From contig NZ_FTOG01000001.1 of NCBI RefSeq assembly GCF_900156655.1, positions 124,001-188,000 of the forward strand: a stretch of 64,000 bases of DNA, in the 5' to 3' direction. This document shows positions 9,098 to 28,843 of the stretch, in pieces. The number at the start of each line of letters is the position of its first letter. Positions within the stretch are counted from its first letter, which is position 1. A program made the position numbers and the translations under genes. The notes below the pieces were generated by a model. The model was not told the DNA's origin and made no database searches. It saw only the letters and a list, made by a program, of their open reading frames with translations. This DNA is from Rhodobacter aestuarii. GTDB taxonomy: Bacteria > Pseudomonadota > Alphaproteobacteria > Rhodobacterales > Rhodobacteraceae.

Positions 9098-9155
9098 CCC
9101 TTGCGCGGCCGTTTGTCCCGAAGGCGGCCGCGCTTTCATCTGTGGGGAGAACCGG

Positions 9156-10850: not shown

Positions 10851-10853
10851 CCG

Positions 10854-12116: not shown

Positions 12117-12132
12117 GCCGGAAAGGAGCGCC

Positions 12133-13044
12133 ATGATCGCCCGTCGCCGCTTTTTAATGACTGCCGCCGCAGTGCTTGCCGCGCCGCCGCGGCTTTGGGC
12201 CAATACCAGCCTAGAGCAAGGTGCTGTGCGCATTGATACGCTCTCGGACGGGTCTTTGATGCTTTCGCCCGGCTTTTTGTTTGGCGCGATGCCGCAGGCG
12301 GAATTGCATGAAATCCTCGCACGTTATGGCGCGCCGCTTGATCGCTTTGATCCGCCGTGTAATGTGACGCTCTACCGCGATGGCATGCATACGGTGCTGT
12401 TCGATGTGGGGGCTGGCCCCGATTTTCAGCCGACAGCAGGCAAATTGACCGAGGCGCTTTCGGTCTTGGGGCTTGCGCCTGAAGACATTACCCATGTGCT
12501 TTTTACCCATGGGCACCCAGACCATCTGTGGGGCGTTTTGGATGAGTTCGATGAGCCCGTTTTCCCCAATGCGCTGCATATGATGGGGCGGATCGAACAT
12601 GATTTCTGGGCCGACCCCGAGATAGTGAACCGTATCGACGCACCGCGCCAAGGCTATGCGGTGGGGGCGCTGCGGCGGTTGCAGACGCTTGGCGAGATCC
12701 GCTTGCTGGAAGCGGGGGAGGAGGCTCTGCCCGGTATAAGCGCGCAGCTCACCCCCGGCCATACGCCGGGGCATATGGCGTTTCGTATCGAAGGGCCAAA
12801 GCCTGCGCTGGTGCTGGGCGATTGTCTCTCGAACCACCATGTCGCCTTTGAGCGGCCCGAATGGCTGACCGGCTCGGACCATGATCGGGAAACCGCCGCC
12901 GCAACGCGGGTCGCGCTGTTGGCGGAACTGGCCAGCGAAGAGATCGCCTTGATTGGCTACCATTTGCCCGGCGGGGGGATTGGTCGGGTGGAGCGGGCCA
13001 ATGGCTCCATCGGGCAGGGCTATCGGTTTGCTTTGGACTTTTAG
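12133..13044 (+). CDS. soxH: SoxH-like exported metallo-beta-lactamase-fold hydrolase
   Basis: 303 residues from the ATG at 12133, with AAAGGAG just upstream. A Tat signal (ARRRFLMTAAAVL) is followed by the metallo-beta-lactamase motif FTHGHPDHLWG (HxHxDH), then LTPGHTPGHMAF and LVLGDCLSNHH, which supply the other zinc ligands. Such proteins close several sox clusters (soxH) and may act as thiol or persulfide hydrolases; the function is not settled. The stop overlaps the 3' end of the convergent YeeE/YedE gene by 4 bases. Confidence 0.8.
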   Translation: MIARRRFLMTAAAVLAAPPRLWANTSLEQGAVRIDTLSDGSLMLSPGFLFGAMPQAELHEILARYGAPLDRFDPPCNVTLYRDGMHTVLFDVGAGPDFQPTAGKLTEALSVLGLAPEDITHVLFTHGHPDHLWGVLDEFDEPVFPNALHMMGRIEHDFWADPEIVNRIDAPRQGYAVGALRRLQTLGEIRLLEAGEEALPGISAQLTPGHTPGHMAFRIEGPKPALVLGDCLSNHHVAFERPEWLTGSDHDRETAAATRVALLAELASEEIALIGYHLPGGGIGRVERANGSIGQGYRFALDF

Positions 13045-14084
13045 CGCTGATCCACCAGCCGGTCGGTCGCCATCGCGCCGATCCACATGCACAAAAGCGC
13101 AAGCCATGCCGTTGCTGTTCCAATGGAGGTGCCAGTGACCCCCGCGCCAATCGCGCAGCCGCCTGCCAGCATCGCCCCAAACCCCATCAAAACCGAACCG
13201 AACATGGAGCGCCGCATCTGGCTTTCGCGCTCGAAGCCTTGAAATTTTAACTCCCGCGTCAGCGCGGCGGCGAAAAACGCCCCAAGAAACACGCCGGGCA
13301 CCAGCCCAACATCGAAATCGAGCTTCGGGGTGGGCTCGAGGAAAAACATCAAGGTGCTGGCCGAAGGCCCGGAAAACGTGGCCGAGGTGACGGAAACCGG
13401 CTCAAAGGCCACTTGCGACAGCGCGAAGGTCAATACCCAGCCCAAGGCCACGGCAAAGCCGACACCCGAGGCAAAGGTGAGCGTGGAAAAGCCGATCTGA
13501 TTGCGCCGCGCCAGCCAAAGTGCCAGCGCTGCGCAACCGGCCCCGAGCCCCAAAGCGCTGCCTTTTGGTAACGAAAGGGCCGCGAAAAGCTCAAGATTAT
13601 GTCCGCCCGGTGTGACCCAAAGCCCGGCCAGCCATTGCCGCAAAGGTGCGAGCCAGCCATGCAGTGCCATCTGCGCCGTGACGGCGAAAATCAGCCCCGA
13701 AACCACGGCGCGCAAATTGCCGGTGGCCGCCAGCACCAAAAGCCGCCCCGAGCAGCCACGCGCCAGCACCATGCCGACCCCAAACATCAGCCCGCCGATC
13801 ACCGCCCCGGACCAGCTGCCCGCAACCGCCATCATCCGCGCATCTTCGGCGCGAAACAGCCCAAGCATTTGCGCCGATTGCACCCAGATCAGCGCGGTTG
13901 AAAAGGTGAGCAGCCAGACCGCGACCGGTCGGCCTAGGTTGCCGCGGGCAAAGTCGATCGTTGCCGCGCGCAGGCAAAAAGAAGACCGCTGTGCCGCAAC
14001 GCCGAAAACCGCCCCTGTCAGCACCCCAAACAGGGCGGACAGGATCGGTTCTTCGATCCAGTCAAGCAGCGGCGTGATCTCCAT
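13041..14084 (-). CDS. Second YeeE/YedE family transporter at the sox locus
   Basis: 347 residues and about nine transmembrane helices. The three family cysteines sit in RSSFCLRAA, LARGCSGRLL and LAGGCAIGAG, which are the positions used for thiosulfate passage in TsuA. It is a distant paralogue of the SoxT-like protein at 3468-4511 (same length, similar Cys layout, little other identity). It converges on soxH with a 4-bp overlap, so the two mRNAs share 3' ends. It may import thiosulfate for assimilation or move sulfane sulfur between compartments. Confidence 0.82.
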   Translation of the reverse strand: MEITPLLDWIEEPILSALFGVLTGAVFGVAAQRSSFCLRAATIDFARGNLGRPVAVWLLTFSTALIWVQSAQMLGLFRAEDARMMAVAGSWSGAVIGGLMFGVGMVLARGCSGRLLVLAATGNLRAVVSGLIFAVTAQMALHGWLAPLRQWLAGLWVTPGGHNLELFAALSLPKGSALGLGAGCAALALWLARRNQIGFSTLTFASGVGFAVALGWVLTFALSQVAFEPVSVTSATFSGPSASTLMFFLEPTPKLDFDVGLVPGVFLGAFFAAALTRELKFQGFERESQMRRSMFGSVLMGFGAMLAGGCAIGAGVTGTSIGTATAWLALLCMWIGAMATDRLVDQR

Positions 14085-14472: not shown

Positions 14473-16227
14473 ATGGCCAAAGTTGCCTATACCGAGGGCC
14501 TGAATGCCAAGCGGTATGACGCCGATGAAGCCGATATTGGCGATGGCGTGACTGCGGGCGCTGTTCAAGGGGATCGTCCCGCATTGATGGGCACCTCTGC
14601 CGCAGGTCCAAACGGCGGACATGCTGCGGAGGTGTCCGTGATGCGTGCCGCCGCGCTTGCCTCCGAAAGCAAAACCAGTTTTGTCAGTGAACCCGTAGCC
14701 CCCCTTTCCGTTTTGGAAACGGATATGCCGGGGCGGAGCTTTGCCTCCGCCGATATGGGGCCCGCGAATGCGTCTATTCGGCCGCTGAATGCACCGCCCA
14801 TTGGCAATGCGCCGACCGCGCGCCTTGCGGATGGCCAGTCGGTGACGATGGATGAGGGCGGTTTCGTCACGCTGGATCCGGGGCCGCCTGTCTCTCCGCC
14901 TGCGATTGATCCTGAAACGGATGACCTTCCCTCGCAGCCCCAGCCGCCGTCGGACCCCGTTGTGGACGATACGAGCGATGACCCGACGCCTGCGGATGAT
15001 CCTGTGCCGCCAGTGGTCGATGATGGGTCCACCCCGGTGATGCCGGACACCGATCCGGGGGAAGATGATCTTCCGCCCGGTGACACGGATGGCCCGGTCG
15101 ATGATGGTGTCGACCCTGAGCCAGATACGGATGACCTTCCTCCGCAGCCCGAGCCGCCGTCAGACCCCGTTGTGGACGATACGAGCGATGACCCGACGCC
15201 TGCGGATGACCCTGTGCCGCCAGAGGTCGATGATGGGTCCACCCCGGTGATGCCGGACACAGATCCGGGGGAAGACGGTCTTCCGTCCGGTGACACAGAT
15301 GGCCCGGTCGATGATGGTGTCGACCCCGTGCCAGATACGGATGACCTTCCTCCGCAGCCCGAGCCGCCGTCAGACCCCGTTGTGGACGATACGAGCGATG
15401 ACCCGACGCCTGCGGATGACCCTGTGCCCCCAGAGGTCGATGATGGGTCCACCCCGGTGATGCCGGACACAGATCCGGGGGAAGACGGTCTTCCGCCCGG
15501 TGACACAGATGGCCCGGTCGATGATGGTGTCGACTCCGTGCCAGATACGGATGACCTTCCTCCGCAGCCCGAGCTGCCGTCAGACCCCGTTGTGGATGAC
15601 ACGAGCGATGACCCGACGCCTGCGGATGACCCAGTGCCTGATACGGATTCCGATGGAACTGGCGATGATCCCACCGCCGATCCGCCTGTCGATGATCATT
15701 CTCCGGAGGACGAGCCGGGGGATGGGGACACCGATCCCACCCCCAATGACAGTACTGGCGACCCAGAGGATGATGCCGGGTCTGATCCGGACAAAGGAAA
15801 CGGTCAGGGCAAGGACGGGGACAAGAAAACCTATGTTGACCCGAACAGTGGCCGTGATGGTGCGGAGCCCGGCCCCGCCGATGTTTACAAGGTGATCACC
15901 GATGAGGATGGGGTGACCACGGTCACCTCGCCCACTGACAAGCGGGGCGGTGGCAAGACTAGCGATGATGGTGGTCTTGATCCCGACATTGATGTGGATG
16001 GGTTGTTTGGGGACTTCACCAATCTGGAGAAGGACGGGGCACCCGGGAACGGCAATGGCCGGGGGAATGAAAAATCGGCGGAGCTAGACGACCTGTCCAT
16101 ACCTTTCGCTGCGGATGGGGGCGAAGACAACGTCTTCATGGGCGACGATATGGACGGCTTCGATTCCGATGTCGGCTCGGCCTTGGATATGGCGCATGAC
16201 CATGGACCGCATGTGAATTTTTTCTGA
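14473..16227 (+). CDS. Acidic Asp/Pro-rich repeat protein, candidate type I secretion substrate
   Basis: 584 residues, not a recognised family. Residues 1-140 are Ala/Gly-rich without a Sec or Tat signal. Residues about 150-390 are three full 70-residue repeats plus a fourth partial one, made almost only of Asp, Pro, Glu, Thr, Gly and Val (for example DDTSDDPTPADDPVP). Then comes a Gly/Asp/Asn-rich linker and an acidic tail ending in hydrophobic VNFF. No RTX nonapeptides are seen. An uncleaved acidic protein with a short hydrophobic C-terminus immediately before two secretion-type ABC genes and an HlyD gene is likely their substrate. This is inference from position; a surface, calcium-binding or mechanical spacer role is possible. 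Confidence 0.6.
   Translation: MAKVAYTEGLNAKRYDADEADIGDGVTAGAVQGDRPALMGTSAAGPNGGHAAEVSVMRAAALASESKTSFVSEPVAPLSVLETDMPGRSFASADMGPANASIRPLNAPPIGNAPTARLADGQSVTMDEGGFVTLDPGPPVSPPAIDPETDDLPSQPQPPSDPVVDDTSDDPTPADDPVPPVVDDGSTPVMPDTDPGEDDLPPGDTDGPVDDGVDPEPDTDDLPPQPEPPSDPVVDDTSDDPTPADDPVPPEVDDGSTPVMPDTDPGEDGLPSGDTDGPVDDGVDPVPDTDDLPPQPEPPSDPVVDDTSDDPTPADDPVPPEVDDGSTPVMPDTDPGEDGLPPGDTDGPVDDGVDSVPDTDDLPPQPELPSDPVVDDTSDDPTPADDPVPDTDSDGTGDDPTADPPVDDHSPEDEPGDGDTDPTPNDSTGDPEDDAGSDPDKGNGQGKDGDKKTYVDPNSGRDGAEPGPADVYKVITDEDGVTTVTSPTDKRGGGKTSDDGGLDPDIDVDGLFGDFTNLEKDGAPGNGNGRGNEKSAELDDLSIPFAADGGEDNVFMGDDMDGFDSDVGSALDMAHDHGPHVNFF
14921..15640 (+). repeat. Tandem 210-bp coding repeat, three copies plus a partial fourth
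   Basis: Copies begin at 14921, 15131, 15341 and 15551, an exact 210-bp (70-codon) period. The first three run full length; the fourth keeps only about 90 bases before diverging. The copies are nearly identical at DNA level, including synonymous sites, with scattered single-base differences. That points to recent expansion or ongoing homogenisation. The frame is preserved throughout, so copy number can change without breaking the gene. Confidence 0.92.
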
Positions 16228-16262
16228 AGCCCGACCTTTCGGTTGGCGTGTGAGAGTGACGA

Positions 16263-17942
16263 GTGCAAAGGGTAGGTTTGAAGTGGGATGTGGTCCCGTT
16301 GGTCGTCGCGACGCTTCTGATCGTCGCGCTGGAACTGGTGATCCCGGTCACGGTGCGCCAGGTCTATGACACGTTCATTCCACACCAATCGCTCGACTCC
16401 CTGAATGTGCTGATGACCGCTGCCGTCGGCTTTTTGCTCGTGGATGCGTTTTTGCGCTGGGCGCGGGCAAATCTTCAGGCATGGCAGGGCGCCCGGCGGG
16501 CGCATGCCGCGGGCACCCGGATGATTGACGCGCTGCTGCAAGGGAATGTGGCGCCGAGCCGGAACAACATCGGCGGAAAGCTTGCGCTGATCAATCTGGT
16601 GCGCGGATATCATGCCGGGGGCGGGGGCAGTTTAGCCGTGACGCTTGCCGAATTGACGATGATCCCGCTGATGCTGGTGCTGATTGCGCTGATCGCGGGC
16701 AAGCTGGCGCTGGTGTCGCTTACGCTGATTGCCGTTTTCTGTGTGGTCATGGTGGTCGCGGGTCGGTTCTTGCGCGATGCCCGCGATGCGCGCCGGGCAG
16801 AGGATGCTGTCCGGCTTGATATGATGGTGGAGACGCTGGGGGCGGCGCAGTCGATCAAGGCGCTTTCGGCGGAGCGGGTCATGGCTGCGCGGCATGCGGG
16901 GCTAAAATACACCTCGGCGCGTTGGCAGTTTGAGGTGGGCCGTTTCCAAACGCTTGTTTTCGATATCACGCAAATCTTCGGCACGGTGATGATCTTGGCC
17001 GTGGTCTTTGTGGGCGCGGGGATGGTGCTTGATAAAGACCTGACGGTCGGTGCGCTTTTGGCGGCGATCATTCTTTCCGGTCGCTCGGTCGTGCCGATGC
17101 AAAAGGCGCTGGGCGCGCTGCATCGCAGCCAAGCGCAACGTAGCGAGCGCAAGCAGGTCGAGGCGCTGCTCGCCACCCCTGCCAGCGCTGCAGTGACGAC
17201 CGTTTCTGCGGCCTTGCCCGAAAACGAGGGCAAGCTGGCGCTGCACGGCGTGCGGATCATGGAGGCCGAGGGGGAAGCGCCGCTTCTCGACACAGTCGAT
17301 TTTGCCTTTCCTGCCCGTCAATTCAGCCTGCTGGATGGTTTGGATCATGCGCAGGCGATGACGGTGTTCAAAACGCTGTCCGGTTTGCAGCGGCCAGAAC
17401 AGGGGGCGGTGCAGCTGAATGGCGCCGATCTGCTGCAACTGCCCGAAGCCTGCCGGGCGCAGCAGATTGCCTATCTGCAAGCTGAAACGGTGCTCTATCG
17501 TGGTACGATCTTGGAAAATTTGACCCGCTTCGGACAGGTGAAAATGTCCGATGCGCAATTCGTGATGCGGCAATTGCGGTTGGATGAAGATCTGAACGTG
17601 CTGCCGCGGGGCTTGCAAACCGTATTGCGGGGCGATGGCGGCGATCCGGTGCCGCCGGGGTTGCGCGAACGTATTGCGCTGGCGCGCAGCTTGGCGCCTC
17701 GGCCGCGGGTGATCCTGTTCAATCATGCGGACAGCGGTTTGGACCGACGCAGTTATACCGCGCTTTACGAATTGCTGGCCAAACTGCGTGGTCACGCAAC
17801 GATTATCATGGCCAGCGATGATGAAACGCTGCGCTCGCTTGCGCAGCATTGCTTTGTTTGTGAGGGCGGCGGGTTGCGTGCGAACGAAGGGGTCTGCCCG
17901 CCGAGCCGACCGCAGACGCGCTATCGTGAGTTGCGGCTATGA
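16263..17942 (+). CDS. Type I secretion-like ABC subunit with degenerate nucleotide-binding domain
   Basis: 559 residues. The N-terminal half is a six-helix ABC exporter membrane domain without a C39-like leader. The C-terminal half aligns as an ABC ATPase, but its key motifs are lost. The Walker A position (near residue 353) reads SLLDGLDHAQAM with no Lys. The signature position reads DPVPPGLRERIALARS. Walker B (near 482) reads VILFNHADSGLD with neither the Asp nor the catalytic Glu. It probably forms a heterodimer with the next protein and does not hydrolyse ATP. The start is GTG 16263 with a weak ribosome site; TTG 16278 is an alternative. The stop overlaps the next start (ATGA). Confidence 0.8.
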   Translation: MQRVGLKWDVVPLVVATLLIVALELVIPVTVRQVYDTFIPHQSLDSLNVLMTAAVGFLLVDAFLRWARANLQAWQGARRAHAAGTRMIDALLQGNVAPSRNNIGGKLALINLVRGYHAGGGGSLAVTLAELTMIPLMLVLIALIAGKLALVSLTLIAVFCVVMVVAGRFLRDARDARRAEDAVRLDMMVETLGAAQSIKALSAERVMAARHAGLKYTSARWQFEVGRFQTLVFDITQIFGTVMILAVVFVGAGMVLDKDLTVGALLAAIILSGRSVVPMQKALGALHRSQAQRSERKQVEALLATPASAAVTTVSAALPENEGKLALHGVRIMEAEGEAPLLDTVDFAFPARQFSLLDGLDHAQAMTVFKTLSGLQRPEQGAVQLNGADLLQLPEACRAQQIAYLQAETVLYRGTILENLTRFGQVKMSDAQFVMRQLRLDEDLNVLPRGLQTVLRGDGGDPVPPGLRERIALARSLAPRPRVILFNHADSGLDRRSYTALYELLAKLRGHATIIMASDDETLRSLAQHCFVCEGGGLRANEGVCPPSRPQTRYRELRL

Positions 17943-20155
17943 GAGATTTGCCGCTCGATATGCTGGCGCAATTGCGCCATGGGGCGCCAAGCGAACCAAA
18001 GCTTGGGCATGCTGAAAGTGCGGCGCAATTGTTTTATGCGCGGTTGAAGGGGGCCGATTGGCACGTGACGCCAGACGCCGAGCCCTTGGCGCTTTGTTTT
18101 TGCATGCTGGTCTTGCGGCTCAAACCAACCCTGCATCCGCGCAGCTTGGCGGCAATCATCAATGCGTCCGCAGATCACGGGTTTGACCGCATGGCCTTGG
18201 TCAACACGATGGCCGCGCTGGGTTACCGCTATGATCGCGTGCGGTTGATGCTGACGGATCTGGATATTCGGGTGCTGCCGGCGCTGATTGTGGGGCGCGA
18301 TGGGCAGGCCTTGGTCTATTATCGCGATGGCGATGATATCGCACTTTTTGATGGTGCGACGCGCCAGCTCGTCGATCCTACGCAATATCGGCAAGAGGTT
18401 GAGGTTTATCTGTTTTCGCGTCTGAACCCAGACGATTTAGCGACCTCTCAAACGCGCCGTGAGGCCACGCAGCAGGCATGGTTCCTGTCTTTGTTCAGCC
18501 GGTTCTGGCCGCATCTGCGCAGCGTGGTTTTGATGGGCATCAGCCTCAATCTGCTGGCGCTTTTGGTGCCAGCGCTGATCTTGGCCGTTTATGCCTTTGT
18601 GATCGACAGCGGCCAGATCGCGCCTTTGCAATATTTGGCGGCGGGCGCGGCGTTGCTTTTGGGCTTTGAGTTCACGCTGCGGCGGCTGCGCTCTCGGGTG
18701 CTGACATGGATGATGGCGCGGCTCGATTATCTTGTGGGCGTCAGCAGCTATGACAAGCTTCTGGGCCTTTCCGCCGAGGCGTTGAATACGGCGGGCGTGT
18801 CGTCTCAAATCGCGCGGATCAAGACCTTTGAGGCGGTGCGCGATTTTCTGTGCGGGCCCTTGATCCTCTCGGCGATAGAGCTGCCGGTCACGGTTTTGGC
18901 GCTGGTCGCCTTGTTCTGGATTGGAGGTACGCTCGCGGTGCCGATCCTTGTCGCCATTATCGTGCTTGTGGCGATTACGCTTATTGCACGGCGCGGCATT
19001 GCGGTGCGCATTCGCCAAAGCGCGGTCGAAGGCTCGAAGATGCAGCAGTTCATCTTGGATACCTTCACGCGACTTGAAAGCATTCGTCTTGATGGGCTGG
19101 CGGGGATCTGGATGGACCGGTTTTTGCATCTGTCGGGGCGTGAGCAATTTGCCATGCTGCGGATGAGCCGGCTTGCCGCCACGGCGGAGATTTTGGCGCA
19201 TCTGACGGTGGGGCTTGCGACGCTTGGGCTGCTTTTCATTGGCACGAAGCAGATTTGGGCCGGGGAGCTTGCTGCTGGAGCCTTGATCGCGGCGATGATG
19301 TTGCAATTGCGGGCCTTGGCGCCCTTGCATGCGATTGTTGGGATGCTGCCGCGCATCGAACAACTCCGCAATGCCATTGAGCAGATCGACCGGCTGATGG
19401 ATATGTCGGAAGAAATTGACCTCAATGACCATGAAGAGGTGAATGCGGCGGCGCTGAACGGACAGATCCGCATTCGCAATGTTTCGCTGCGCTATGGTCC
19501 CAAGGTGCCTGCGGTGCTCTCGGGCTTTTCTATTGATATTGCCGAGGGGGAGGTGATCGGGATCACCGGCGGCAATGGCAGTGGCAAAAGCACCCTGCTC
19601 AAACTGCCGCTGGGGCTGAGCACGCCGCAGCTTGGGGCGGTGCAATTGGGCGGGTTTGATATTCGCCAGTTCAATGCGGCAGAGCTGCGCGAGCGGGTCG
19701 CCTATTTTCCGCAGACGGTGGATTTGTTCAGCGGCACGCTGGCCGACAATTTGCGGATTGCGATGCCGATTGCCCGCAATGCCGATTTGGAGGCCGCGCT
19801 CGAAGAAGCTGGTGCCTTGAACCAGTTACGCAGCTTGCCCGATGGGCTGCAAACGGTGGTGGACCCGGCACGGCTTTCGGCCAGCCAACCTTTGTTGCGC
19901 GAGCGGATTGGCCTTGCGCGCGCGCTGTTGCGCCCGGCGCAGGTGCTGTTGATTGATGAGCGGCCCGCGATGGCACTTTTGGCCGGGTTGGATCGGGATA
20001 TCGAACGGGTTTTGAAACAAAGCCGGGGTCATAAAACCACGCTTTTTGTCAGTTCGCGCACCGATTTTCTGCGCCTTGCGGATCGGGTGATTGCGATGAC
20101 CGGCGACGGGCGCGCGCAGGTGGGCCCACTCGATAAGATTATGAGGACAGCATGA
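17939..20155 (+). CDS. Type I secretion ABC ATPase with C39-like N-terminal domain
   Basis: 738 residues. Residues 1-150 form a C39-peptidase-like domain (DMLAQLRHG, LPALIVGRDGQALVYYRDGDDIALFDG) of the kind that binds type I substrates without cutting. Then come membrane helices (about 180-440) and an ATPase domain with intact Walker A GGNGSGKST (near 544) and Walker B VLLIDERP with the catalytic Glu (near 672). The signature is altered to LSASQ, and the switch-His position reads FVSSRTDF, without His. With the preceding dead subunit it would form a pump with at most one competent nucleotide site. Overlaps both neighbours by ATGA. Confidence 0.85.
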   Translation: MRDLPLDMLAQLRHGAPSEPKLGHAESAAQLFYARLKGADWHVTPDAEPLALCFCMLVLRLKPTLHPRSLAAIINASADHGFDRMALVNTMAALGYRYDRVRLMLTDLDIRVLPALIVGRDGQALVYYRDGDDIALFDGATRQLVDPTQYRQEVEVYLFSRLNPDDLATSQTRREATQQAWFLSLFSRFWPHLRSVVLMGISLNLLALLVPALILAVYAFVIDSGQIAPLQYLAAGAALLLGFEFTLRRLRSRVLTWMMARLDYLVGVSSYDKLLGLSAEALNTAGVSSQIARIKTFEAVRDFLCGPLILSAIELPVTVLALVALFWIGGTLAVPILVAIIVLVAITLIARRGIAVRIRQSAVEGSKMQQFILDTFTRLESIRLDGLAGIWMDRFLHLSGREQFAMLRMSRLAATAEILAHLTVGLATLGLLFIGTKQIWAGELAAGALIAAMMLQLRALAPLHAIVGMLPRIEQLRNAIEQIDRLMDMSEEIDLNDHEEVNAAALNGQIRIRNVSLRYGPKVPAVLSGFSIDIAEGEVIGITGGNGSGKSTLLKLPLGLSTPQLGAVQLGGFDIRQFNAAELRERVAYFPQTVDLFSGTLADNLRIAMPIARNADLEAALEEAGALNQLRSLPDGLQTVVDPARLSASQPLLRERIGLARALLRPAQVLLIDERPAMALLAGLDRDIERVLKQSRGHKTTLFVSSRTDFLRLADRVIAMTGDGRAQVGPLDKIMRTA

Positions 20156-21576
20156 GCTATTCGGATCAAACTGCGCTGGCTGTTTCGGCCTCGGCTGGGG
20201 GGCTTCAACCTGCGGGCGGTGTGTCTTTGGGGGCCGCGAAAAGTGGCCGTCGCCGCAAGCGCAATATCCAGTTGCGCCATTTGGCCGAAAGCATTCGCCT
20301 TGAAGAGCGCACCGATGGGATTGGATTGCAGGCGGCGATTTGGCTTTGTGCGGCCATGTTGGTCGCCATCACCCTTTGGGCGGGGCGGGCAGAATTGCCG
20401 ATTGTCGTGCAGGCTCCGGGGCAGATCATGCCCGCCAGCTTTGAACGTGAATTGGTGCATCGTGAAGCTGGGCGGTTGGTTGAATTGGCGGTGCGTCCCG
20501 GTGAAAAGGTGGCGCAGGGGCAATTGATCGCGCGGCTTGATGACGACGATCTGGTGGCGGATTTGCAGTTGCAGGCGCGCCAGCGGCTTTCGTTTTTGTT
20601 GCGGATTGAGCGCCTGACAGCCTTTGTAGAGGCGCGCGACCCCGATTTTCGCACGGGCGACCCGTCTGCGCCTTTTGCGGCAGAAGAGCTTGTTTCCGCG
20701 CGCAATGCATGGGCGGCGATGAAAACCGCGCTGCACGATCAGACCACAATCGTCTCGGAACAGCTGGCGAAGGCTGTGCGCGAGCAAGGCATCGTTACCA
20801 GCCGGATCGCCGCGCAAAAGGACCTGTTGGCGTCTATGGAAGACCTGCTTGGGCGTAAGGAGGTTCTGTTTGCCAAAGAATTGGTCGCTTATCCGGTGAT
20901 TATCGAGGCGCGGCAGGCGGTGATTTCGGCCAAGGCCGAGCTGGAGGTTCTGGAGCGTCAGTTTGAGCGTAGCGTGAATTCGATCCGGGAGTTGGACGCT
21001 CGGCTTTTGGCGGTGACAAGCGAGCGGCAAGCCTCTGCGCGGCAAGACCTTGAGGTGGCGCGGGCCGGGCTTGCGGAAACCGATGTGCGGATTGCGACGC
21101 TCTCCTCTGCCATCGAGATGCGCCGCATTCGCGCGCCGATTGACGGCACGGTCAAGCTGCCAGAGCGGCTGGCTGTGGGCGATTATATCGGGGCAGGGCG
21201 CCCGATTGGCCATATTGTCCCGACGACGGATCGGCTTGTCGCGCGGGTTAGAATTCCGGCGGAAGATATTGCAAATATCGCGCCGGGGATGTCGGTCGAA
21301 CTTAAAATAACCGCGCTAGATTACACGCGATTTGGGACGATCTCTGGTATTTTAGAGACTTTATCGCCTGCGGCCATGTTGGCCGAAAATGGGGCAGTCT
21401 ACTTTACGGCGGAGGTTTCGCCTAATGTTGAATATATTGATTATCAAGGGCGAGAATTAAAATTGATTCCGGGAATGACTGTGGAGGCTGGTCTTATTAA
21501 TGGGTCGCGAACCATTCTGGAATACCTTTTTAATCCAATAAATCAAGCGGTGTATGGTGCGTTTCACGAGGGTTGA
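20152..21576 (+). CDS. HlyD-family membrane fusion protein of the type I secretion system
   Basis: 474 residues. A cytoplasmic N-terminus of about 60 residues precedes one transmembrane helix (LQAAIWLCAAMLVAITLWAG region). A biotinyl-lipoyl half-motif (VVQAPGQIMPA, EAGRLVELAVRPGEKVAQGQLIARLDD) follows, then a long alpha-helical hairpin of about 200 residues and the returning lipoyl half with beta-barrel (RAPIDGTVKLPERLAVGDYI). This is the LapC/PrtE/HlyD adaptor that links the ABC pump to a TolC-type channel. No outer-membrane channel gene is present nearby. The last 270 bases are clearly richer in A/T than the rest of the operon. Confidence 0.88.
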   Translation: MSYSDQTALAVSASAGGLQPAGGVSLGAAKSGRRRKRNIQLRHLAESIRLEERTDGIGLQAAIWLCAAMLVAITLWAGRAELPIVVQAPGQIMPASFERELVHREAGRLVELAVRPGEKVAQGQLIARLDDDDLVADLQLQARQRLSFLLRIERLTAFVEARDPDFRTGDPSAPFAAEELVSARNAWAAMKTALHDQTTIVSEQLAKAVREQGIVTSRIAAQKDLLASMEDLLGRKEVLFAKELVAYPVIIEARQAVISAKAELEVLERQFERSVNSIRELDARLLAVTSERQASARQDLEVARAGLAETDVRIATLSSAIEMRRIRAPIDGTVKLPERLAVGDYIGAGRPIGHIVPTTDRLVARVRIPAEDIANIAPGMSVELKITALDYTRFGTISGILETLSPAAMLAENGAVYFTAEVSPNVEYIDYQGRELKLIPGMTVEAGLINGSRTILEYLFNPINQAVYGAFHEG

Positions 21577-21578
21577 AT

Positions 21579-22502
21579 ATGTTGGAAGCAGGATCAGAGA
21601 GCTTTAAGGTCGCCTCCACCATTATGGCGGTGGATGATGATCCTGTGGCATTGTTGATGATTTCCGAGCTTCTCAAGAAGCTTGGCTATCAAACGCTTAC
21701 GGCCACCAGCGGTTCGGCGGCGCTTGAGATGATGGAGCAGGGCTCTGTGCCGCAAGTTTTGTTGCTGGATCGACAAATGCCCGGCTTGAGCGGCATGGAT
21801 GTCGTCCATCACCTGAAAGAAAAGAAGCAGTTCGCTCGGATTCCCGTGATTATGGTGACGGGTTCAGATGATCCGAAAGAAATCCGCGAAGGCATTGATG
21901 CGGGGGTCTTTTACTACTTGCACAAGCCGGCGCATGTGGGCGTTTTGTCTTCGGTTCTGGCGGCAGCTTTGCGGCAGGCAAGCGAAAGCACCGCCCTCGT
22001 GCATGAAACTGTGCCGCAAGTTGGCTTTGACCTGTGCGAAGCCGCGAAATGGACGTTTCGCACCCCGCGCGAAGCCACGGCCTTGGCCGCCACCATCGCG
22101 AATTATTTTCCGGATCCTGATCGCAGTGTCGATGGCATTGGGGCGCTTTTGCTCAATGCGGTAGAGCATGGGATTTGCGCGATCGGTTTTGAGGAAAAGG
22201 GGCGGTTGCTTGAGGAAGGGCAGCTTTCGCAGAGCATCAAGGAACGGCTGATCCAGAACCCCGATACCCGCGCAACCGCCGCGATTTCGCGCCGGGACGA
22301 TGGGATGATGCTGATCGTCGATGACCCGGGCGCGGGCTTCAATTGGAGCGAATTTACGACGCTGGACCTGTCGCGTTCAAGTGCATCGCATGGTCGGGGC
22401 ATCGCGCGAGCAAAAGCCATGGCTTTCGATGATTTAAAATTCAACGAGGCCGGGAACCGCGCCATCGCTTTCATGCGGTATAATGCGACTTTTGAGTGGT
22501 GA
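21579..22502 (+). CDS. Response regulator with REC domain and HATPase (SpoIIAB/RsbW-like) output
   Basis: 307 residues from the ATG at 21579. GAGGG at 21568-21572 fits this ATG and not the upstream TTG at 21573. The REC domain (residues 12-135) has acidic pocket VDDDP, phosphoacceptor Asp64 in LLLDRQMPG, VTGSDD and the conserved Lys in YLHKPA. Residues about 150-300 resemble a GHKL ATPase of the anti-sigma/serine-kinase class: IGALLLNAVEHGI (N-box), VDDPGAGFNW (G1), and SRSSASHGRGIARAKAM (G2). The protein may phosphorylate or bind a partner-switch antagonist when phosphorylated. It lies between the secretion genes and the hybrid kinase. Confidence 0.8.
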   Translation: MLEAGSESFKVASTIMAVDDDPVALLMISELLKKLGYQTLTATSGSAALEMMEQGSVPQVLLLDRQMPGLSGMDVVHHLKEKKQFARIPVIMVTGSDDPKEIREGIDAGVFYYLHKPAHVGVLSSVLAAALRQASESTALVHETVPQVGFDLCEAAKWTFRTPREATALAATIANYFPDPDRSVDGIGALLLNAVEHGICAIGFEEKGRLLEEGQLSQSIKERLIQNPDTRATAAISRRDDGMMLIVDDPGAGFNWSEFTTLDLSRSSASHGRGIARAKAMAFDDLKFNEAGNRAIAFMRYNATFEW

Positions 22503-22511
22503 GGCGGTTCG

Positions 22512-25500
22512 ATGCCCTTTTCTGAAGGCCTTGCTGGCGCTGCGACAAATAAAGGAAAATACGCCGATACATGGTGGTTGCGTTGGTCCTTGGTCGCCGT
22601 ATTGGGTGTGTTGACGATTGTTGGCTTGAATGTCTACTTTTTACGAGCCGATTACGAGGAATATGTAGCAGGTCAGAACGTTCATATTTCAGAAGAAATA
22701 TCGAAGCAGCTTGAAGACCCTTTTCAAAAATCATCCGGGCGGGTTTTGGCCCTGCGTTCCCTCATTATGTCGTCGCATGAGGTGACCTTAGAAGAGTTTG
22801 AGGCGTTTTCTGCCGTAGCTGTCGCGCATGGGACCGATTTTGCGCATGGCTATGGTTGGCTGCCCAGTGCGGGGAGCGGGCCGATCATGATGGTTGGCAA
22901 TATGCCGAACGCGCCAACATTCGAAATGAAAGACTTAAGCCCCCAAGTTCGGAAGCTATTGGAAGATGTTGAGGCCGGGCGCGGCCTTCAGCGTGATGTG
23001 CTTGTGGGCGGCGTTTTGGCCGAGCAAAGCGCGAATACCGATCTGGTCACGCTTTTGCGCCAAGTCTCCACCAGCTCCCATAACGGCGACGAAAAGGGGA
23101 TTGTCTTTGCCACCTTCAGCATTCGGCGGTTCTTGCTGTTTGCCTCGCTGCCGCTGGAAAGCTGGATCACGCGTGTGGCACTGGTTGAAGAGAGTGGAGA
23201 GACAACGCTTTTCCGGCATGCACGGATGCCCGGTTTCAGCGCAGAAGAACCGCTGACCCTCACCGAAGGCCCGATGACGTTTTCGCTTGCGGTGCAATAT
23301 GAAAACACGCCGTTTGGGACCTTTTTCGTCGAAGAGAAGCTCGCGAACCAATTGGTTTTTATCGCCATGATGGTGCTTTTGTCGGCCTCGGCTTATCTGA
23401 CGCTGCGCCAAATCCGGTTGAGCCGCAAAGCGGCGCAAATCTCGGCCGAGGCGAATTATCAAAAGACCCGTTTTTTGGCGACGATGAGCCACGAGATGCG
23501 CACGCCGCTCAACGGGATCATCGGCATGTCGGATTTGTTGCTTGATACCAAGTTGGATGACGAGCAACGCAGGAATGTGCAAACGCTAAACCATTCGGCC
23601 GAGAACCTGCTGGCGCTGATCAACCAGATCCTCGACTTTTCCAAGATTGAGGCCCGCGAAGTGGTGTTGGACCCGCAGATCATGGATCTGGGGGAATTGG
23701 TTTCGAATGTGATCAATGCCGTTGGCGTGTTGGCCTCAGATAAACAGATCGAATTGGTGGCAATTATGCCGTTGGACGCCTGTATCTCGGTGCAGGTGGA
23801 CGATATGAAGCTGCGCCAAATCCTGACCAATCTGATGTCAAACGCGATCAAATTCACCAATGAGGGCAGCGTCACGCTGCGGGTGGATGTGATCGAGAAA
23901 GACAGCAATGAGCGTGCGGTGTTCCGGTTCACCGTGGAAGATACCGGTGTTGGTATTCCGGCTGAGCGGCTGGAGACGATCTTCAAACCCTTTGAGCAGG
24001 CCGATAGTTCGACCACGCGCAATTATGGGGGCACCGGGCTTGGGCTTGCGATCACGCGCGAAATGCTTCTGGCAATGGACAGCGACATTCGTGTGCGTTC
24101 GGAAGTTGGAAAAGGGTCGGCCTTTGGGTTTGAACTGCGGCTTGAGGCCGACACCCACACCCCGGTATTGCGTAAGGAGCGCTGCATTCTGGGGCTGCAA
24201 AACATGCTGGTGGTGATGCCCGATACGCCGCGCAGGTTGGCAGCGATCATCGAGCTTGAAACAGTGGGCGCACAGCCGATCAGCGCGTTCACGGTCGATG
24301 CGGCGCGGCATGTTTTGGAGGGCGCGTTGGAACGGAACGAGCCCATCGGTCTTGTTTTGGCGGGCGATGCGCCAACCGCCGCTGCGATCCGCGCTTACTG
24401 CGCCGGGCGTGAAGAATTCTCCAAGATTAAAATCGCGATCGTCCGCTCTTCGGTGCGGAACACGCAACCCTTGAGCAAAGAAGAACAAGCGGCGGCGGAT
24501 TTCTTTGTGGCCTCGCCGCATACGGCGGTGACCCTGACACAAAATATCGCCTCTGCCTTCCAGCATTGGTTCTTTAGTTCTGGCCCCGACACGGCGATGA
24601 CCCAGCCGATCCAACCGCCGAAAGTGCGGTATGACGGGCTCCGGGTGCTGCTGGTGGATGACGACAAGGTCAACCAGATGTATGGCACCTCGCTTTTGGG
24701 CAAAATGGGCTGCGAGGTTGGTACGGCATGGAATGGGCAAGAGGCGATTGAGACTTTTGGCTCTGGGGCCGACTGGGATGTAATTTTGCTCGATTGTCAG
24801 ATGCCGATCATGGATGGCTATGAGACGGCGCGAAAACTGCGCGAGGCAATGCAGGAGCGGCGGGTGAAGCGCCGTCCGATCATTGCGCTCACCGCCAATG
24901 CACAAAAAGGCGACCGTGAAAAATGCCTCGCCGCGGGAATGGATTCTTTCCTCTCCAAGCCTGTGCGCCAAGGCGATGTGGAAGCCAAATTCAAAGAGCT
25001 TTTGCGCGGCTGGAGAGCGAAATCCCCTGCAAAACCTGAAGCTCAAGAACCGGAAGCCCCGCCGCCACAGCCCCCGATGCTTGTGGAACCCATCGACGCG
25101 CAGAAGGTGCTGATCGACGATGACGACATACCGCCTGCGGTGCCCGTGGCGGAGCCGCCCCCCGCGCTGACAGGGTTAGAAACCCTCGATGAATTGGAGG
25201 GCAACGCCGTGCAAGCTGCGCCCGAAGCGACGAAGGAAGAGACACTCCCCGAATATCGCCCGCGCGCCGAGATCGTTGCCACTGCGGTGATGCTTGAAAC
25301 GAAAGAGATGTTGGGAGAGGCTTTCGTGCAGCTTTTGCAGACATTCCTAGATGGTGTACCGGGGCAGTTGGGCGCGATCGACTTCGACATTGACGCCCGC
25401 AATTATGACAATGTCCGGCTCGTCGCGCACACGTTGAAAAGCTCTTCAAAAATGGTTGGGGCGATGGCGATGGCGGAAGTGGCCGAGTTGCTCGAAGCGG

Positions 25501-25622
25501 AGGCGCGCGCCGCAGAGCCATCGCGGATCATGGCCTTGTCTTATGCCGATGCCTTGCGGCGCAGTTTCGGCAATTTTGTACGGGTGCTTGATACCGCCCA
25601 AAACCTTGCAAAATCGGCCTAG
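22512..25622 (+). CDS. Hybrid sensor histidine kinase with CHASE-like sensor, REC and HPt domains
   Basis: 1036 residues. Transmembrane helices at about 24-46 and 278-300 bracket a periplasmic CHASE-like domain ([30 protein letters not shown]). The cytoplasmic part holds a HisKA H-box with His327 ([13 protein letters not shown]), HATPase boxes ([30 protein letters not shown]), a degenerate receiver-like segment (about 560-690), a functional REC with Asp761 ([11 protein letters not shown]), a Pro-rich linker and an HPt with His973 ([11 protein letters not shown]). This is a complete ArcB/BarA-like relay in one chain. It is co-directional with the REC-HATPase gene 9 bp upstream, which is its most likely target. 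Confidence 0.88.
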
Positions 25623-25630
25623 GGGGGACC

Positions 25631-26533
25631 ATGCGGCAGTTTTTCTTTGCTTCGGTGCTGGCCTGTGCAGCGGTTTTTGCCGCCCCGGTGAGGGCCGTTG
25701 AAATCTCGATCATCGTCAATGAACCCTCGAACGAGTTCTGGTTCGAAGAGGGGGAATTGGCAAAACGCTACGCGCGGAAACTGGGCTATGACGTGCGTGT
25801 TTTTGCGCATTCGGGTGATTTGACCACGGAAACGGCCTTGCTTCAGCGTGCAGTCGAAAGCGGCAGTGCCGCGATTTTACTGGACCCTGCGCATCTGGAA
25901 AATTCGGCCCGCGCAGTGGACGAGGTGGTCGCGCGCGGTGTCCCGGTTTTTGTGCTCAATGCCAAGCTGAACTCTGCCAGCGTTACGGCGCAATTTCTGT
26001 CAGACAACGAGGCTTGCGGGCGGTTGGCTGCGCAGCAATTCGTGACCGAAATGCAGGGGGCGGGCACATTCGTGCAGTTGGATGGCCCCGATAGCGATCT
26101 GAATTCACAACTGCGCCGCCAAGGGTTTGAATCGGTTTTGCCGGAATACCCCAAATTGCAGCGGTTGAAAGCGATGAGCGCGGGCTGGGACAGACAGACC
26201 GCGTTTCGGAAAGTCTCTGCATTGCTTGAAACCGGGGCGCATTTTGATGGCGTGCTCTCGGCCAATGATACGATGGCGCTTGGCGCAATTGATGCGCTTG
26301 CGAATTATGATCGGGCGCAATTCGTGATCATTGGCGGCTTTGATGGCACTTTCGAGGCCCAAGAGCGCATCACCCGGGGGGACATGAGCTACACGATTGC
26401 CCAACCCTTGGAGCAGATCACGCAAAATGCCGTGGATATGATGGACCGGCTCTTGAAGGGCGAAGAACTGCCCAAGGTCGAGGCCCCGTTCCTGTTTCCC
26501 TGCCATGTCATCGGTGGTGGGACAACGGGCTAA
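25631..26533 (+). CDS. Periplasmic sugar-binding protein (ribose-binding-protein family), orphan
   Basis: 300 residues with a signal peptide (cleavage after VRA, about residue 23) and a type I periplasmic-binding fold (Peripla_BP_4): IIVNEPSNEFWFEEGE, AILLDPAHLENSARAVDEVVARGVPVFVLNAKL, VLSANDTMALGAIDAL, VIIGGFDGT. No permease or ATPase gene is nearby. It starts 8 bases after the hybrid kinase stop, with GGGGGG as ribosome site, so it is co-transcribed with a kinase that has a large periplasmic domain. That suggests a ligand-loaded sensor partner, as LuxP is for LuxQ, rather than uptake. The ligand is unknown. Confidence 0.8.
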   Translation: MRQFFFASVLACAAVFAAPVRAVEISIIVNEPSNEFWFEEGELAKRYARKLGYDVRVFAHSGDLTTETALLQRAVESGSAAILLDPAHLENSARAVDEVVARGVPVFVLNAKLNSASVTAQFLSDNEACGRLAAQQFVTEMQGAGTFVQLDGPDSDLNSQLRRQGFESVLPEYPKLQRLKAMSAGWDRQTAFRKVSALLETGAHFDGVLSANDTMALGAIDALANYDRAQFVIIGGFDGTFEAQERITRGDMSYTIAQPLEQITQNAVDMMDRLLKGEELPKVEAPFLFPCHVIGGGTTG

Positions 26534-27518: not shown

Positions 27519-28724
27519 TTAGGCGCTCGCGCGCGTGAAGGCGTGGTAGAGGCCGCGCAGTTCTGCGAGGCCTTTCAGGCGACCAATCGCGGGGTAACCG
27601 GGCTGCGCTTCGCGGCCAATGTCATCGAGAATGTCTTGCCCGTGGTCGGGCCGCATCGGGATCGACCAATCTGTCCGCCCAGCGTCGCGCCGCCGCGCTT
27701 CCTCCGCCACCACGGCGCGCATCATTGCCACCATGTCGGTGTGCCCGCTCAGATGCTCATCCTCAAAGAAGGAGTTCATCACCGCCGTGCCCTCGATCCG
27801 GACATTGCGCAGATGCAAGAAATGCACCCGGTCCGCCAAAGCCTCAAAGATCTTCACCGGGTCATTGTCAGGCCGCGCGCCGAGTGAGCCGGTGCACAGC
27901 GTGACCCCGTTTGCGGGCAGATCGACAGCCTCTAGAATGGTGCGGTAATGCGCCTCGCTCGACATGATCCGGGGCAGGCCCAGAAGCGGGAAGGGCGGAT
28001 CATCGGGGTGGCAGCACAACCGCATGCACAGTTCTTGCGCAAGCGGCGCGACCTCAGAGAGGAAGTCGATCATGTGGCGCTGCAATTGCGGCTCTGAAAT
28101 CGCATCATATTCGGCCAGATGCGCACGCACATCTTCCAGCGTGAATCGCTCTGCCGCGCCCGGCAGACCAAAGACGACATTCCCCGCGATCAAGGTTTTC
28201 TCGGCTTCGGTCATCTCTGCAAAACGTTTTTGCGCCGCTTCAACCACTTCGGGCGGGAAGCTTTCGGCAGCGCCTTTGCGCGCGAGGATATGAATATCGA
28301 ACGCGGCGAAGTCGATCAGATCAAAGCGCATGCAACGCGCGCCGTTGGGGCGCTCCCACGCCAGATTGGTGCGTGTCCAATCCAAGACCGGCATGAAATT
28401 ATAGCAGATCACCTCGATCCCGGCGGCGTGCAGGTTCTGCATCGAGGTTTTCCACGCGGCGATATGGGCTTTCCAATCGCCTTGCTGTTTTTTGATGTCT
28501 TCCGACACGGGCAGGGATTCGACCACTTCCCAGTTCAGTCCGGAGGGGCGGCCATCGCGCCGGGTGGCAATTTCAGCTTGGCGGCGGGCAATTTCTTCGG
28601 GGGTCCAGACCGTTCCAGTCGGCACATGATGGAGCGCCGAAACCACGCCTTCGACCCCGGCTTGCATCATATCATCAATGCTCACACGGTCTTGCGGCCC
28701 AAACCAACGCCAGGTCTGACGCAT
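27519..28724 (-). CDS. uxuA: Mannonate dehydratase
   Basis: 401 residues, the usual UxuA length. Family features include the start MRQTWRWFGPQDRVSI, VVSALHHVPTGTVWTPEEI, the metal/catalytic region RLCCHPDDPPFPLLGLPRI (Cys-His-Pro-Asp-Asp-Pro) and FEDEHLSGHTDMVAMM with the conserved His. It dehydrates D-mannonate to 2-keto-3-deoxy-D-gluconate in the cytoplasm, a step of glucuronate or gulonate breakdown. It is divergent from a GntR regulator gene 119 bp away and belongs functionally with the TRAP transporter and dehydrogenase that follow that regulator. Confidence 0.95.
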   Translation of the reverse strand: MRQTWRWFGPQDRVSIDDMMQAGVEGVVSALHHVPTGTVWTPEEIARRQAEIATRRDGRPSGLNWEVVESLPVSEDIKKQQGDWKAHIAAWKTSMQNLHAAGIEVICYNFMPVLDWTRTNLAWERPNGARCMRFDLIDFAAFDIHILARKGAAESFPPEVVEAAQKRFAEMTEAEKTLIAGNVVFGLPGAAERFTLEDVRAHLAEYDAISEPQLQRHMIDFLSEVAPLAQELCMRLCCHPDDPPFPLLGLPRIMSSEAHYRTILEAVDLPANGVTLCTGSLGARPDNDPVKIFEALADRVHFLHLRNVRIEGTAVMNSFFEDEHLSGHTDMVAMMRAVVAEEARRRDAGRTDWSIPMRPDHGQDILDDIGREAQPGYPAIGRLKGLAELRGLYHAFTRASA

Positions 28725-28843
28725 GTCTTCTCCTCCCCTATGTCACCGCCCGGATGGGGCGTTCCTCGCGCTTTTCCTAGCACGCTGGGGAATGTGTTGA
28801 CTAGTATGGAAGTATGGCGCATGGTCTGCCTCAGGAGGAGAGA
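28725..28843. promoter_or_regulatory. uxuA-gntR divergent promoter region
   Basis: This 119-bp gap must contain promoters for both directions. A short direct repeat (AGTATGG at 28803-28809 and again at 28811-28817) sits next to TTGACTAG, close to where a GntR operator for self-control could lie. GGAGGAGAG just before 28844 is the ribosome site of the regulator. No clean palindromic GntR site is visible, so the operator call is tentative. Confidence 0.4.

What the first reader, a model, noticed from the sequence alone, without database searches (positions are those of the whole stretch)
14473..26533. A 12-kb operon that joins a heteromeric type I secretion pump, a repeat-rich acidic protein and a full phosphorelay
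Seen: seven genes in a row on one strand, four of the junctions within 10 bp or ATGA-overlapping: Asp/Pro repeat protein, ABC with dead ATPase domain, ABC with C39-like domain, HlyD adaptor, REC-HATPase protein, CHASE hybrid kinase with HPt, orphan sugar-binding protein. Known: type I systems usually carry one ABC and are not fused to a private kinase and binding protein. Inference: surface display or release of the acidic protein may be gated by an extracellular sugar through the kinase. I know no described system with this gene set.
Basis: partly seen in the sequence, partly recalled or inferred. Interest (0 to 1): 0.85.

Follow-up and report, generated by a model that had tools for sequence, protein, structure and literature searches.

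The report
Two-ABC secretion operon with private phosphorelay
The operon is real and belongs to a lineage of protein-export machines in alphaproteobacteria, apparently including a bacterial predator, in which a lopsided pair of pump proteins probably exports a very acidic surface protein and is encoded together with its own signalling proteins.

Summary
The seven genes are present as described; five of six junctions overlap or are under 10 bp apart. The operon is rare near home (1 of 18 genomes of its genus; 3 of 394 family genomes sampled carry the inactive ABC above 40% identity) but belongs to a wider alphaproteobacterial lineage. In a tree of 71 two-ABC export loci, 36 form one clade. In 35 of these 36 an acidic, Lys/Arg-poor gene ends just upstream of the first ABC, and all 35 assessable ones carry the REC-HATPase and/or a kinase gene after hlyD, against 0 of 31 outside. 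A genome matching Micavibrio aeruginosavorus ARL-13 in size has the locus.

All 36 have one extra residue after the Walker B glutamate of ABC2 (0 of 35 others). The two ABCs have lost complementary ATP-site parts, and a relative encodes both in one protein, so they very likely pair. The sugar-binding gene occurs in 2 of 79 loci, so sugar gating is not core. Pfam does not support CHASE. Secretion, adhesion and gating are inferred; the window's acidic protein matches the others only by position and composition.

Verdict: new variant of type I secretion.

The parts
14473..16227 (+). Putative exported acidic protein, 584 aa, pI about 4.05, 126 Asp, 96 Pro, 12 Lys, 9 Arg, no Cys; C terminus HVNFF; no Pfam or NCBIfam match
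14917..15638 (+). Tandem array in that gene: 210-bp unit, 3.4 copies, 96% matches; residues 149-390 hold 0 Lys/Arg, 71 Asp, 63 Pro
16263..17942 (+). ABC1: half-transporter without Walker A Lys, Walker B NH for DE, PPG in place of the LSGGQ core, no switch His, D-loop Asp kept
17939..20155 (+). ABC2: C39-like domain plus half-transporter; Walker A Lys and Walker B DE intact; one-residue insertion after DE; degenerate signature; switch His replaced by Ser
20152..21576 (+). HlyD-type periplasmic adaptor; TIGR01843 261.3 bits over cut-off 208.65
21573..22502 (+). REC-HATPase (RsbW/HATPase_c_2-like, by relatives and motifs); receiver Asp66; alternative ATG start at 21579
22512..25622 (+). Hybrid kinase: periplasmic sensor, HisKA (His327), HATPase, REC (Asp761), HPt (His973)
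25631..26533 (+). Periplasmic binding protein, Peripla_BP_4 (RbsB-like), with no permease gene in the operon; accessory (2 of 79 loci)

Best explanation
The operon encodes a type I secretion machine with its own signalling unit. Shown by sequence: ABC1 and ABC2 are a conserved asymmetric pair with HlyD, an acidic gene directly upstream (Lys/Arg-poor in the clade), and REC-HATPase and/or kinase genes downstream. Inferred strongly: ABC1 and ABC2 form a heterodimer with one main ATP site made of ABC2 Walker A/B and ABC1 signature and D-loop. Inferred: with HlyD and a TolC-like protein encoded elsewhere, the pair exports the acidic protein, which acts at the cell surface, most likely as an Asp-rich adhesin or matrix protein like Paracoccus BapA. 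Inferred: the kinase passes phosphate His327-Asp761-His973 to Asp66 of the REC-HATPase, whose RsbW-like domain then switches a partner (a STAS protein, a sigma factor, or the ABC pair itself) and so sets production or export of the protein. In this strain and in Aquimixticola a RbsB-like binding protein is added, possibly as a LuxP-like ligand input to the kinase.
For: Clade: 36 of 36 loci monophyletic among 71, FastTree support 1.0; the insertion column, filled in 36 of 71 rows, falls under the 70% trimming rule. ABC2 insertion 36/36 against 0/35; ABC2 Walker A Lys 36/36, Walker B Asp 36/36, Glu 35/36; ABC2 D-loop Asp lost 33/36; ABC1 catalytic Glu kept 2/36 against 25/35; ABC1 D-loop Asp 36/36. 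ABC1 and ABC2 halves in one 1378-aa protein in Azospirillum lipoferum. Acidic upstream gene 35/36 against 4/35; REC-HATPase and/or kinase in 35 of 35 assessable clade loci against 0 of 31 (L040). A repeat-motif profile from 24 clade proteins finds 8 further ORFs at E<0.01 among 4381, all 8 directly upstream of ABC1. HlyD over its curated cut-off. Outer-membrane OEP matches in 6 frames elsewhere in the genome. REC-HATPase profile matches PDB 9qih over REC and ATPase parts, E 2.7e-23. BapA: Asp-Ala repeat adhesin next to its type I genes (PMC5588039, passages).
Against: No experiment. The window's own acidic protein matches none of the clade's N-terminal, C-terminal or repeat profiles and, at 3.6% Lys+Arg, is at the top of the range of the 27 complete clade proteins; its place in the family rests on position and composition. 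ABC2 has lost the switch His in 27 of 36, so ATPase activity of the main site is not certain; a Walker A pattern is still present in ABC1 of 24 of 36, so ABC1 may bind ATP in many members. A kinase was not found beside 13 of 36 loci, Micavibrio-like L184 and L186 among them, and four loci lack the REC-HATPase (L098, L102, L103, L177). Pfam does not call HATPase_c_2 in the window protein at E<=1. No outer-membrane gene in the operon. No partner of the REC-HATPase was identified.
Confidence: 0.6

Rival explanations
1. The signalling genes only share a transcript with the secretion genes; the phosphorelay controls something else, such as general stress, biofilm or c-di-GMP output.
For: A kinase plus REC-HATPase pair exists in Azospirillum lipoferum beside a diguanylate cyclase, with no annotated type I genes within about 12 kb. 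No DNA-binding domain found in the seven proteins.
Against: 35 of 35 assessable clade loci carry REC-HATPase and/or kinase after hlyD against 0 of 31 other two-ABC loci; HlyD/REC-HATPase spacing is 32 bp or less in 29 of 30 loci measured.
Confidence: 0.25
2. The ABC pair no longer pumps by regular ATP hydrolysis; it is a slow, gated or purely regulatory complex.
For: Switch His absent in 27 of 36 ABC2 and 36 of 36 ABC1; no LSGGQ in either subunit of the 12 clade loci printed; window ABC1 lacks the Walker A Lys.
Against: Walker A Lys, Walker B Asp and Glu of ABC2 are kept in 36/36, 36/36 and 35/36, hard to explain without ATP use.
Confidence: 0.12
3. The acidic protein is not the substrate; the pump exports something else and the acidic gene is only a neighbour.
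For: The window protein shares no detectable sequence with the clade's upstream proteins; the genome has another type I-like ABC gene next to an OEP gene.
Against: An acidic gene lies directly upstream in 35 of 36 clade loci, with a shared repeat motif in 28 of 35; BapA precedent.
Confidence: 0.1

Closest known systems
MARTX type I secretion RtxB/RtxD/RtxE of Vibrio (PMC3034196, passages)
   Same: Two ABC proteins, one HlyD-type adaptor, TolC encoded elsewhere; both ABC proteins reported as needed
   Different: Substrate is a very large RTX toxin; the passages name no kinase or REC-HATPase in the locus; relation of RtxE to ABC1 was not tested here
BapA-BapBCD of Paracoccus denitrificans (PMC5588039, passages)
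   Same: Asp-rich low-complexity protein (891 Asp-Ala repeats, pI 2.4) encoded beside its type I genes; needed for attached growth
   Different: One ABC protein, outer-membrane gene in the cluster, control by NO and c-di-GMP; homology to the acidic protein here was not tested
LuxP-LuxQ of Vibrio (recalled)
   Same: Periplasmic binding protein of the ribose-binding fold with a hybrid kinase
   Different: Here HPt is fused to the kinase and the candidate output is a REC-HATPase; NCBIfam LuxQ_Vibrio scores 303 bits against a cut-off of 1200
SenB, PDB 9qih (name only)
   Same: REC plus HATPase in one 304-aa chain, matched over both parts
   Different: Searches listed no paper on this protein (other proteins share the name); its context is unknown to me
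Heterodimeric ABC exporters such as TmrAB and TM287/288 (PMC8277102, passages)
   Same: Two different half-transporters, one of them with a degenerate ATP site
   Different: No C39-like domain there (recalled); this pair has lost the switch His in most members

Membership tests
Type I secretion system | HlyD-type adaptor | tested here: met
   TIGR01843 261.3 bits, cut-off 208.65
Type I secretion system | ABC exporter of the HlyB/LssB kind | tested here: met
   TIGR03375 398.4 bits for ABC2 (E 5.8e-119, residues 49-736) and 219.8 for ABC1: clear homology, but both under that model's curated cut-off of 693.1
Type I secretion system | TolC-like outer-membrane protein | tested here: inconclusive
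   None in the operon; 11 OEP matches in 6 frames elsewhere in the genome; which one serves is unknown
Type I secretion system | Substrate exported by this pump | not testable with these tools
   No experiment; gene position and composition only
Heterodimeric ABC exporter | Complementary loss of ATP-site parts in two subunits | tested here: met
   ABC1 catalytic Glu kept 2/36, D-loop Asp 36/36; ABC2 Walker A/B kept, D-loop Asp lost 33/36; against it, a Walker A pattern remains in 24 of 36 ABC1; fused halves in a relative
RTX proteins | Gly/Asp nonapeptide repeats | tested here: not met
   No Pfam match for the window's acidic protein at E<=1; no GGxGxD repeat in the sequence, read by eye
BapA-type Asp-rich type I substrate | Asp-rich repeats, gene next to type I genes | tested here: met
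   126 Asp in 584 aa, pI about 4.05, gene directly before ABC1
BapA-type Asp-rich type I substrate | Sequence homology to BapA | not tested
   BapA sequence not fetched
CHASE-domain kinase | CHASE profile match | tested here: not met
   No CHASE match at E<=0.1 in any of 9 kinases scanned; model resembles KinD dCache (E 1.8e-5), PcrK (1.4e-3) and AHK4 (5.4e-3), pLDDT 68
RsbW-type partner-switch regulator | HATPase_c_2 domain with N, G1, G2 motifs | tested here: met
   NA[VIL]EHG, DxGxGF and GRGI in all 9 sequences aligned, the window's included. Pfam HATPase_c_2 over cut-off in 1 of 8 REC-HATPases scanned, below it in 5, no match at E<=1 in the window protein and P0011; over cut-off in the Azospirillum one
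RsbW-type partner-switch regulator | STAS or sigma partner | not tested
   No partner searched
LuxPQ-type receptor | Binding protein docks on the kinase sensor | not testable with these tools
   Adjacency only, in 2 of 79 loci

The most novel reading that the evidence does not exclude
This is a signal-gated type I secretion system: a private receiver protein, the REC-HATPase, fed by a dedicated phosphorelay in most loci, acts directly on an asymmetric ABC pair and so opens or closes export of a Lys/Arg-poor acidic surface protein after translation. The one-residue insertion in the ABC2 ATP site, found in 36 of 36 loci of the signalling clade and 0 of 35 others, would be part of that control. 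In the predator Micavibrio (there with the REC-HATPase but no adjacent kinase) it would control a surface or attachment protein used on prey.
Probability: 0.25. Interest if true: 0.85.

Novelty: new variant of a known kind. Interest (0 to 1): 0.6.

Why it matters
Type I secretion is usually pictured as running whenever its substrate is made. Here a clade of exporters carries its own receiver protein (31 of 35 assessable loci) and often its own kinase (23 of 36), and the loci of that clade share a change in the ABC2 ATP site that the 35 other loci examined lack. That makes the question whether a protein exporter can be gated by a phosphorelay directly testable. Loci of 25 genomes (18 genera) of one order proved to be in the clade, among them one of the exact size of the obligate predator Micavibrio aeruginosavorus ARL-13. 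This also defines a candidate surface protein family (motif near LDPVExIVGDID, C terminus often GGLF) with no convincing Pfam match in 10 proteins scanned.

Tried and rejected
Viral contigs: ABC1 alignment gave 37 pattern stretches, none a relative. The genome-contig scan used two peptide patterns and returned 5 loci, fewer than genome search found; it served for names and two distant Stappia loci. Plasmid search with ABC1: 3323 records, the 30 listed are all under 29% identity. N-terminal 137 residues of the window acidic protein against plasmids: no match at E<=1. The REC-HATPase AlphaFold model had pLDDT 55 and was not searched. SenB: three paper searches listed no paper on that protein. 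Empty-site test in the genus: upstream flank found at 73% identity in G401, but the downstream flank gave only short weak matches, so no clean empty site. Promoter scan: none upstream of the acidic gene on the + strand; 6 promoter-like sites in 14 kb against 4.9 expected and 22 terminator-like against 16.6, so no evidence either way. Considered and dropped: RTX protein, CHASE kinase, sugar gating as a core feature. Pfam matches of two acidic fragments at or over cut-off (DUF3181 in the Aquimixticola fragment P0014, Brucella_OMP2 in the Oceanicella fragment P0019, each over about 20 residues of the repeat) are taken as chance. Literature searches for this gene set; no listed title or abstract start described it, and only open-licence PMC papers were searchable.

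Rows dropped before counts: 8 of 79 loci were left out of the tree (L104, L106, L113, L169, L171, L180, L191, L204) because ABC2 was truncated or not paired by the script. L040 was annotated wrongly by my ORF script (long chance ORFs in GC-rich DNA) and set by hand. L174 was called 'other' by my regular expression but has the insertion (DDLP) on inspection. The low-Lys/Arg count used a greedy ORF choice that missed some upstream genes, the window's among them. Of 39 other genomes hit, 20 were fetched; of the genomes hit, 8 places were fetched. L206 and L087 were fetched and not used.
Full report
1. Observation. The window is G000:C19:124001-188000 of a 3.84-Mb genome. All seven frames are present on the + strand at the stated places. 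Five of six junctions overlap or are under 10 bp apart; acidic gene to ABC1 is 35 bp. The acidic gene holds a 210-bp tandem unit, 3.4 copies, 96% matches, and residues 149-390 of its product contain no Lys or Arg.

2. Domains. Pfam gives ABC_membrane and ABC_tran for both ABC proteins, HlyD_3 for the adaptor, Response_reg for the REC-HATPase, HisKA, HATPase_c, Response_reg and Hpt for the kinase, and Peripla_BP_4 for the SBP. NCBIfam places the adaptor over the cut-off of TIGR01843; both ABC proteins match the LssB-type model best, below its cut-off. The window's acidic protein has no match in either library. The kinase has His327, Asp761 and His973, and Asp66 lies in the REC-HATPase. No CHASE domain was found at E<=0.1 in 9 kinases scanned. 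A model of the window sensor region (pLDDT 68) resembles KinD dCache best (E 1.8e-5), then CqsR, PcrK and AHK4: a double-PAS sensor class, with modest confidence.

3. Near relatives. In 394 family genomes, drawn one per genus from a larger group, three carry ABC1 at over 40% identity: the window's own, G042 and G263. A fourth, G414, of another genus of the family, appeared in the search of 390 genomes of the order. In Aquimixticola the order ABC1-ABC2-HlyD-REC-HATPase-kinase-SBP is intact; in Oceanicella it is intact until the contig ends inside the kinase. In both, the contig begins with the 3' part of an Asp-rich tandem-repeat gene directly upstream of ABC1, with repeats unlike the window's. 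In the window's genus 1 of 18 genomes has the system; the next best match there is E 7.9e-58 against 1.8e-303.

4. Wider family. A class-level search found ABC1 at E<=1e-75 in 40 of 385 genomes. Of the 39 others I fetched 20 loci; 8 proved to be in the clade described below, one was too short to tell (L104), and 11 were outside it or unassessed. A search of the order of G895 found ABC1 at E<=1e-110 in 32 of 142 genomes, 23 of 54 genera. I fetched 31 loci from it: 24 are in the clade, 3 are not (L194-L196), 4 were too short for the tree. With G895 that is 25 genomes of 18 genera. A phylum search hit 53 of 249 genomes; of 8 places fetched outside the class (L198-L205), 7 fell outside the clade and one was unassessed. 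One clade genome, G1086, is a single contig of 2,481,983 bp, exactly the size given for Micavibrio aeruginosavorus ARL-13 in Table 1 of PMC3189940 (passages). The passages seen there describe other type I genes, not this locus. Its locus (L184) has the acidic gene, both ABCs, HlyD and the REC-HATPase but no kinase beside them.

5. Clade. Of 79 two-ABC loci examined, 71 entered a tree of trimmed ABC1 plus ABC2 (1285 columns). Columns filled in under 70% of rows were dropped, which removes the insertion column. The 36 loci whose ABC2 has one extra residue after the Walker B Glu (Asp in L174) form a single clade with support 1.0. Window and Aquimixticola are sisters, then Oceanicella, then G414. 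I labelled loci by the insertion and their neighbours beforehand, so the tree is the independent part of this test.

6. What marks the clade. Insertion 36/36 against 0/35. Acidic gene (100 aa or more, K+R under 6%) directly upstream of ABC1: 35/36 (L193 lacks it; 8 of the 35 are cut by contig ends) against 4/35. REC-HATPase after hlyD: 31 of 35 assessable, counting L040 by hand; absent in L098, L102, L103 and L177, which all have a kinase there; L189 could not be assessed. A kinase lies beside 23 of 36. Outside the clade no REC-HATPase or kinase in 31 assessable loci (35 minus L084, L060, L202 and L047, which lack sequence after hlyD). The SBP occurs in 2 of 79 loci.

7. The putative substrates. 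The 27 complete upstream proteins have median K+R of 0.9% (range 0.2-3.6%) and median length 738; the window's is at the top of that range. Low Lys/Arg is not unique: 43 of 745 non-overlapping ORFs of 200 aa or more are under 3%, including likely substrates outside the clade. A repeat motif, roughly LDPVExIVGDID, is in 28 of 35 clade proteins and in none of the other ORFs (the pattern was written from these proteins). A profile from 24 of them finds 8 further ORFs below E 0.01 among 4381, and all 8 lie directly upstream of ABC1. Twenty-seven of 35 have LF within the last eight residues; 8, the window's included, do not. The window protein matches none of the N-terminal, C-terminal or repeat profiles; a likeness of its N terminus (RYDADEADIGDG against KLDADQYMAEDLDG) is by eye and regular expression only.

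8. The ABC pair. ABC2 keeps Walker A Lys 36/36, Walker B Asp 36/36 and Glu 35/36 but has lost the D-loop Asp in 33/36 and the switch His in 27/36. ABC1 keeps the D-loop Asp 36/36 and a Pro-Gly signature core (33/36 and 35/36) but keeps the catalytic Glu in 2/36 and the switch His in 0/36; a Walker A pattern remains in 24 of 36 ABC1, not in the window's. This is complementary loss: one main ATP site from ABC2 Walker motifs and ABC1 signature and D-loop. In Azospirillum lipoferum AZO_p3 both halves are one 1378-aa protein, the first half matching ABC1 best (447.6 bits) and the second ABC2 best (428.4 bits). Eighteen places listed lie in open frames of 1300 aa or more and may be fusions too; these were not checked.

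9. The signalling module. The REC-HATPase has invariant N-box, G1 and G2 motifs in nine aligned sequences. A profile of it matches PDB 9qih, called SenB, over both domains; the window's ATPase part alone matches it at E 2.4e-5. Azospirillum lipoferum AZO_p4 has a hybrid kinase and a REC-HATPase with no annotated type I genes within about 12 kb, so the module can live apart.

10. Mechanism. Shown: gene order, clade, motif loss. Inferred: heterodimer (strong), export of the acidic protein (likely), surface adhesion like BapA (plausible), control through the REC-HATPase (plausible; target unknown), ligand input through the SBP in two genera only (speculative).

11. Known systems. Two-ABC type I secretion is known from MARTX (PMC3034196, passages). 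An Asp-rich type I adhesin is known from Paracoccus (PMC5588039, passages). Heterodimeric ABC exporters with one degenerate site are known (PMC8277102, passages). No paper listed in searches described the combination by title or abstract start; only open-licence PMC papers are covered. Filed as a new variant of type I secretion.

Noticed in passing
L216:6833-10969 (Azospirillum lipoferum 4B, AZO_p3): ABC1 and ABC2 halves fused in one 1378-aa protein beside HlyD and a divergent very large Ig-like protein gene.
   Followed up: partly
L215:8437-12894 (Azospirillum lipoferum 4B, AZO_p4): Hybrid kinase with Cache sensor plus REC-HATPase beside a diguanylate cyclase, without annotated type I genes.
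   Followed up: partly
window 8240-14084 and 27519-30582: The operon lies between a sulfur-oxidation region (SoxA/TsdA, flavocytochrome c sulfide dehydrogenase, sulfur transport) and UxuA, GntR/FCD and TRAP binding-protein genes.
   Followed up: partly
G000:C19:98604-101886: Another type I-like ABC gene next to an OEP outer-membrane gene, about 22 kb before the window.
   Followed up: no
L194:3-9365: Outside the clade, a 3120-aa frame with K+R 0.4% directly upstream of ABC1.
   Followed up: no
G000:C6:206592-207386: ABC gene match with one in-frame TGA in the window's own genome.
   Followed up: no
L098:6087-7007 and L103:5374-6267: In two loci without REC-HATPase, a protein with two receiver-domain stretches sits upstream of the acidic gene.
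   Followed up: partly
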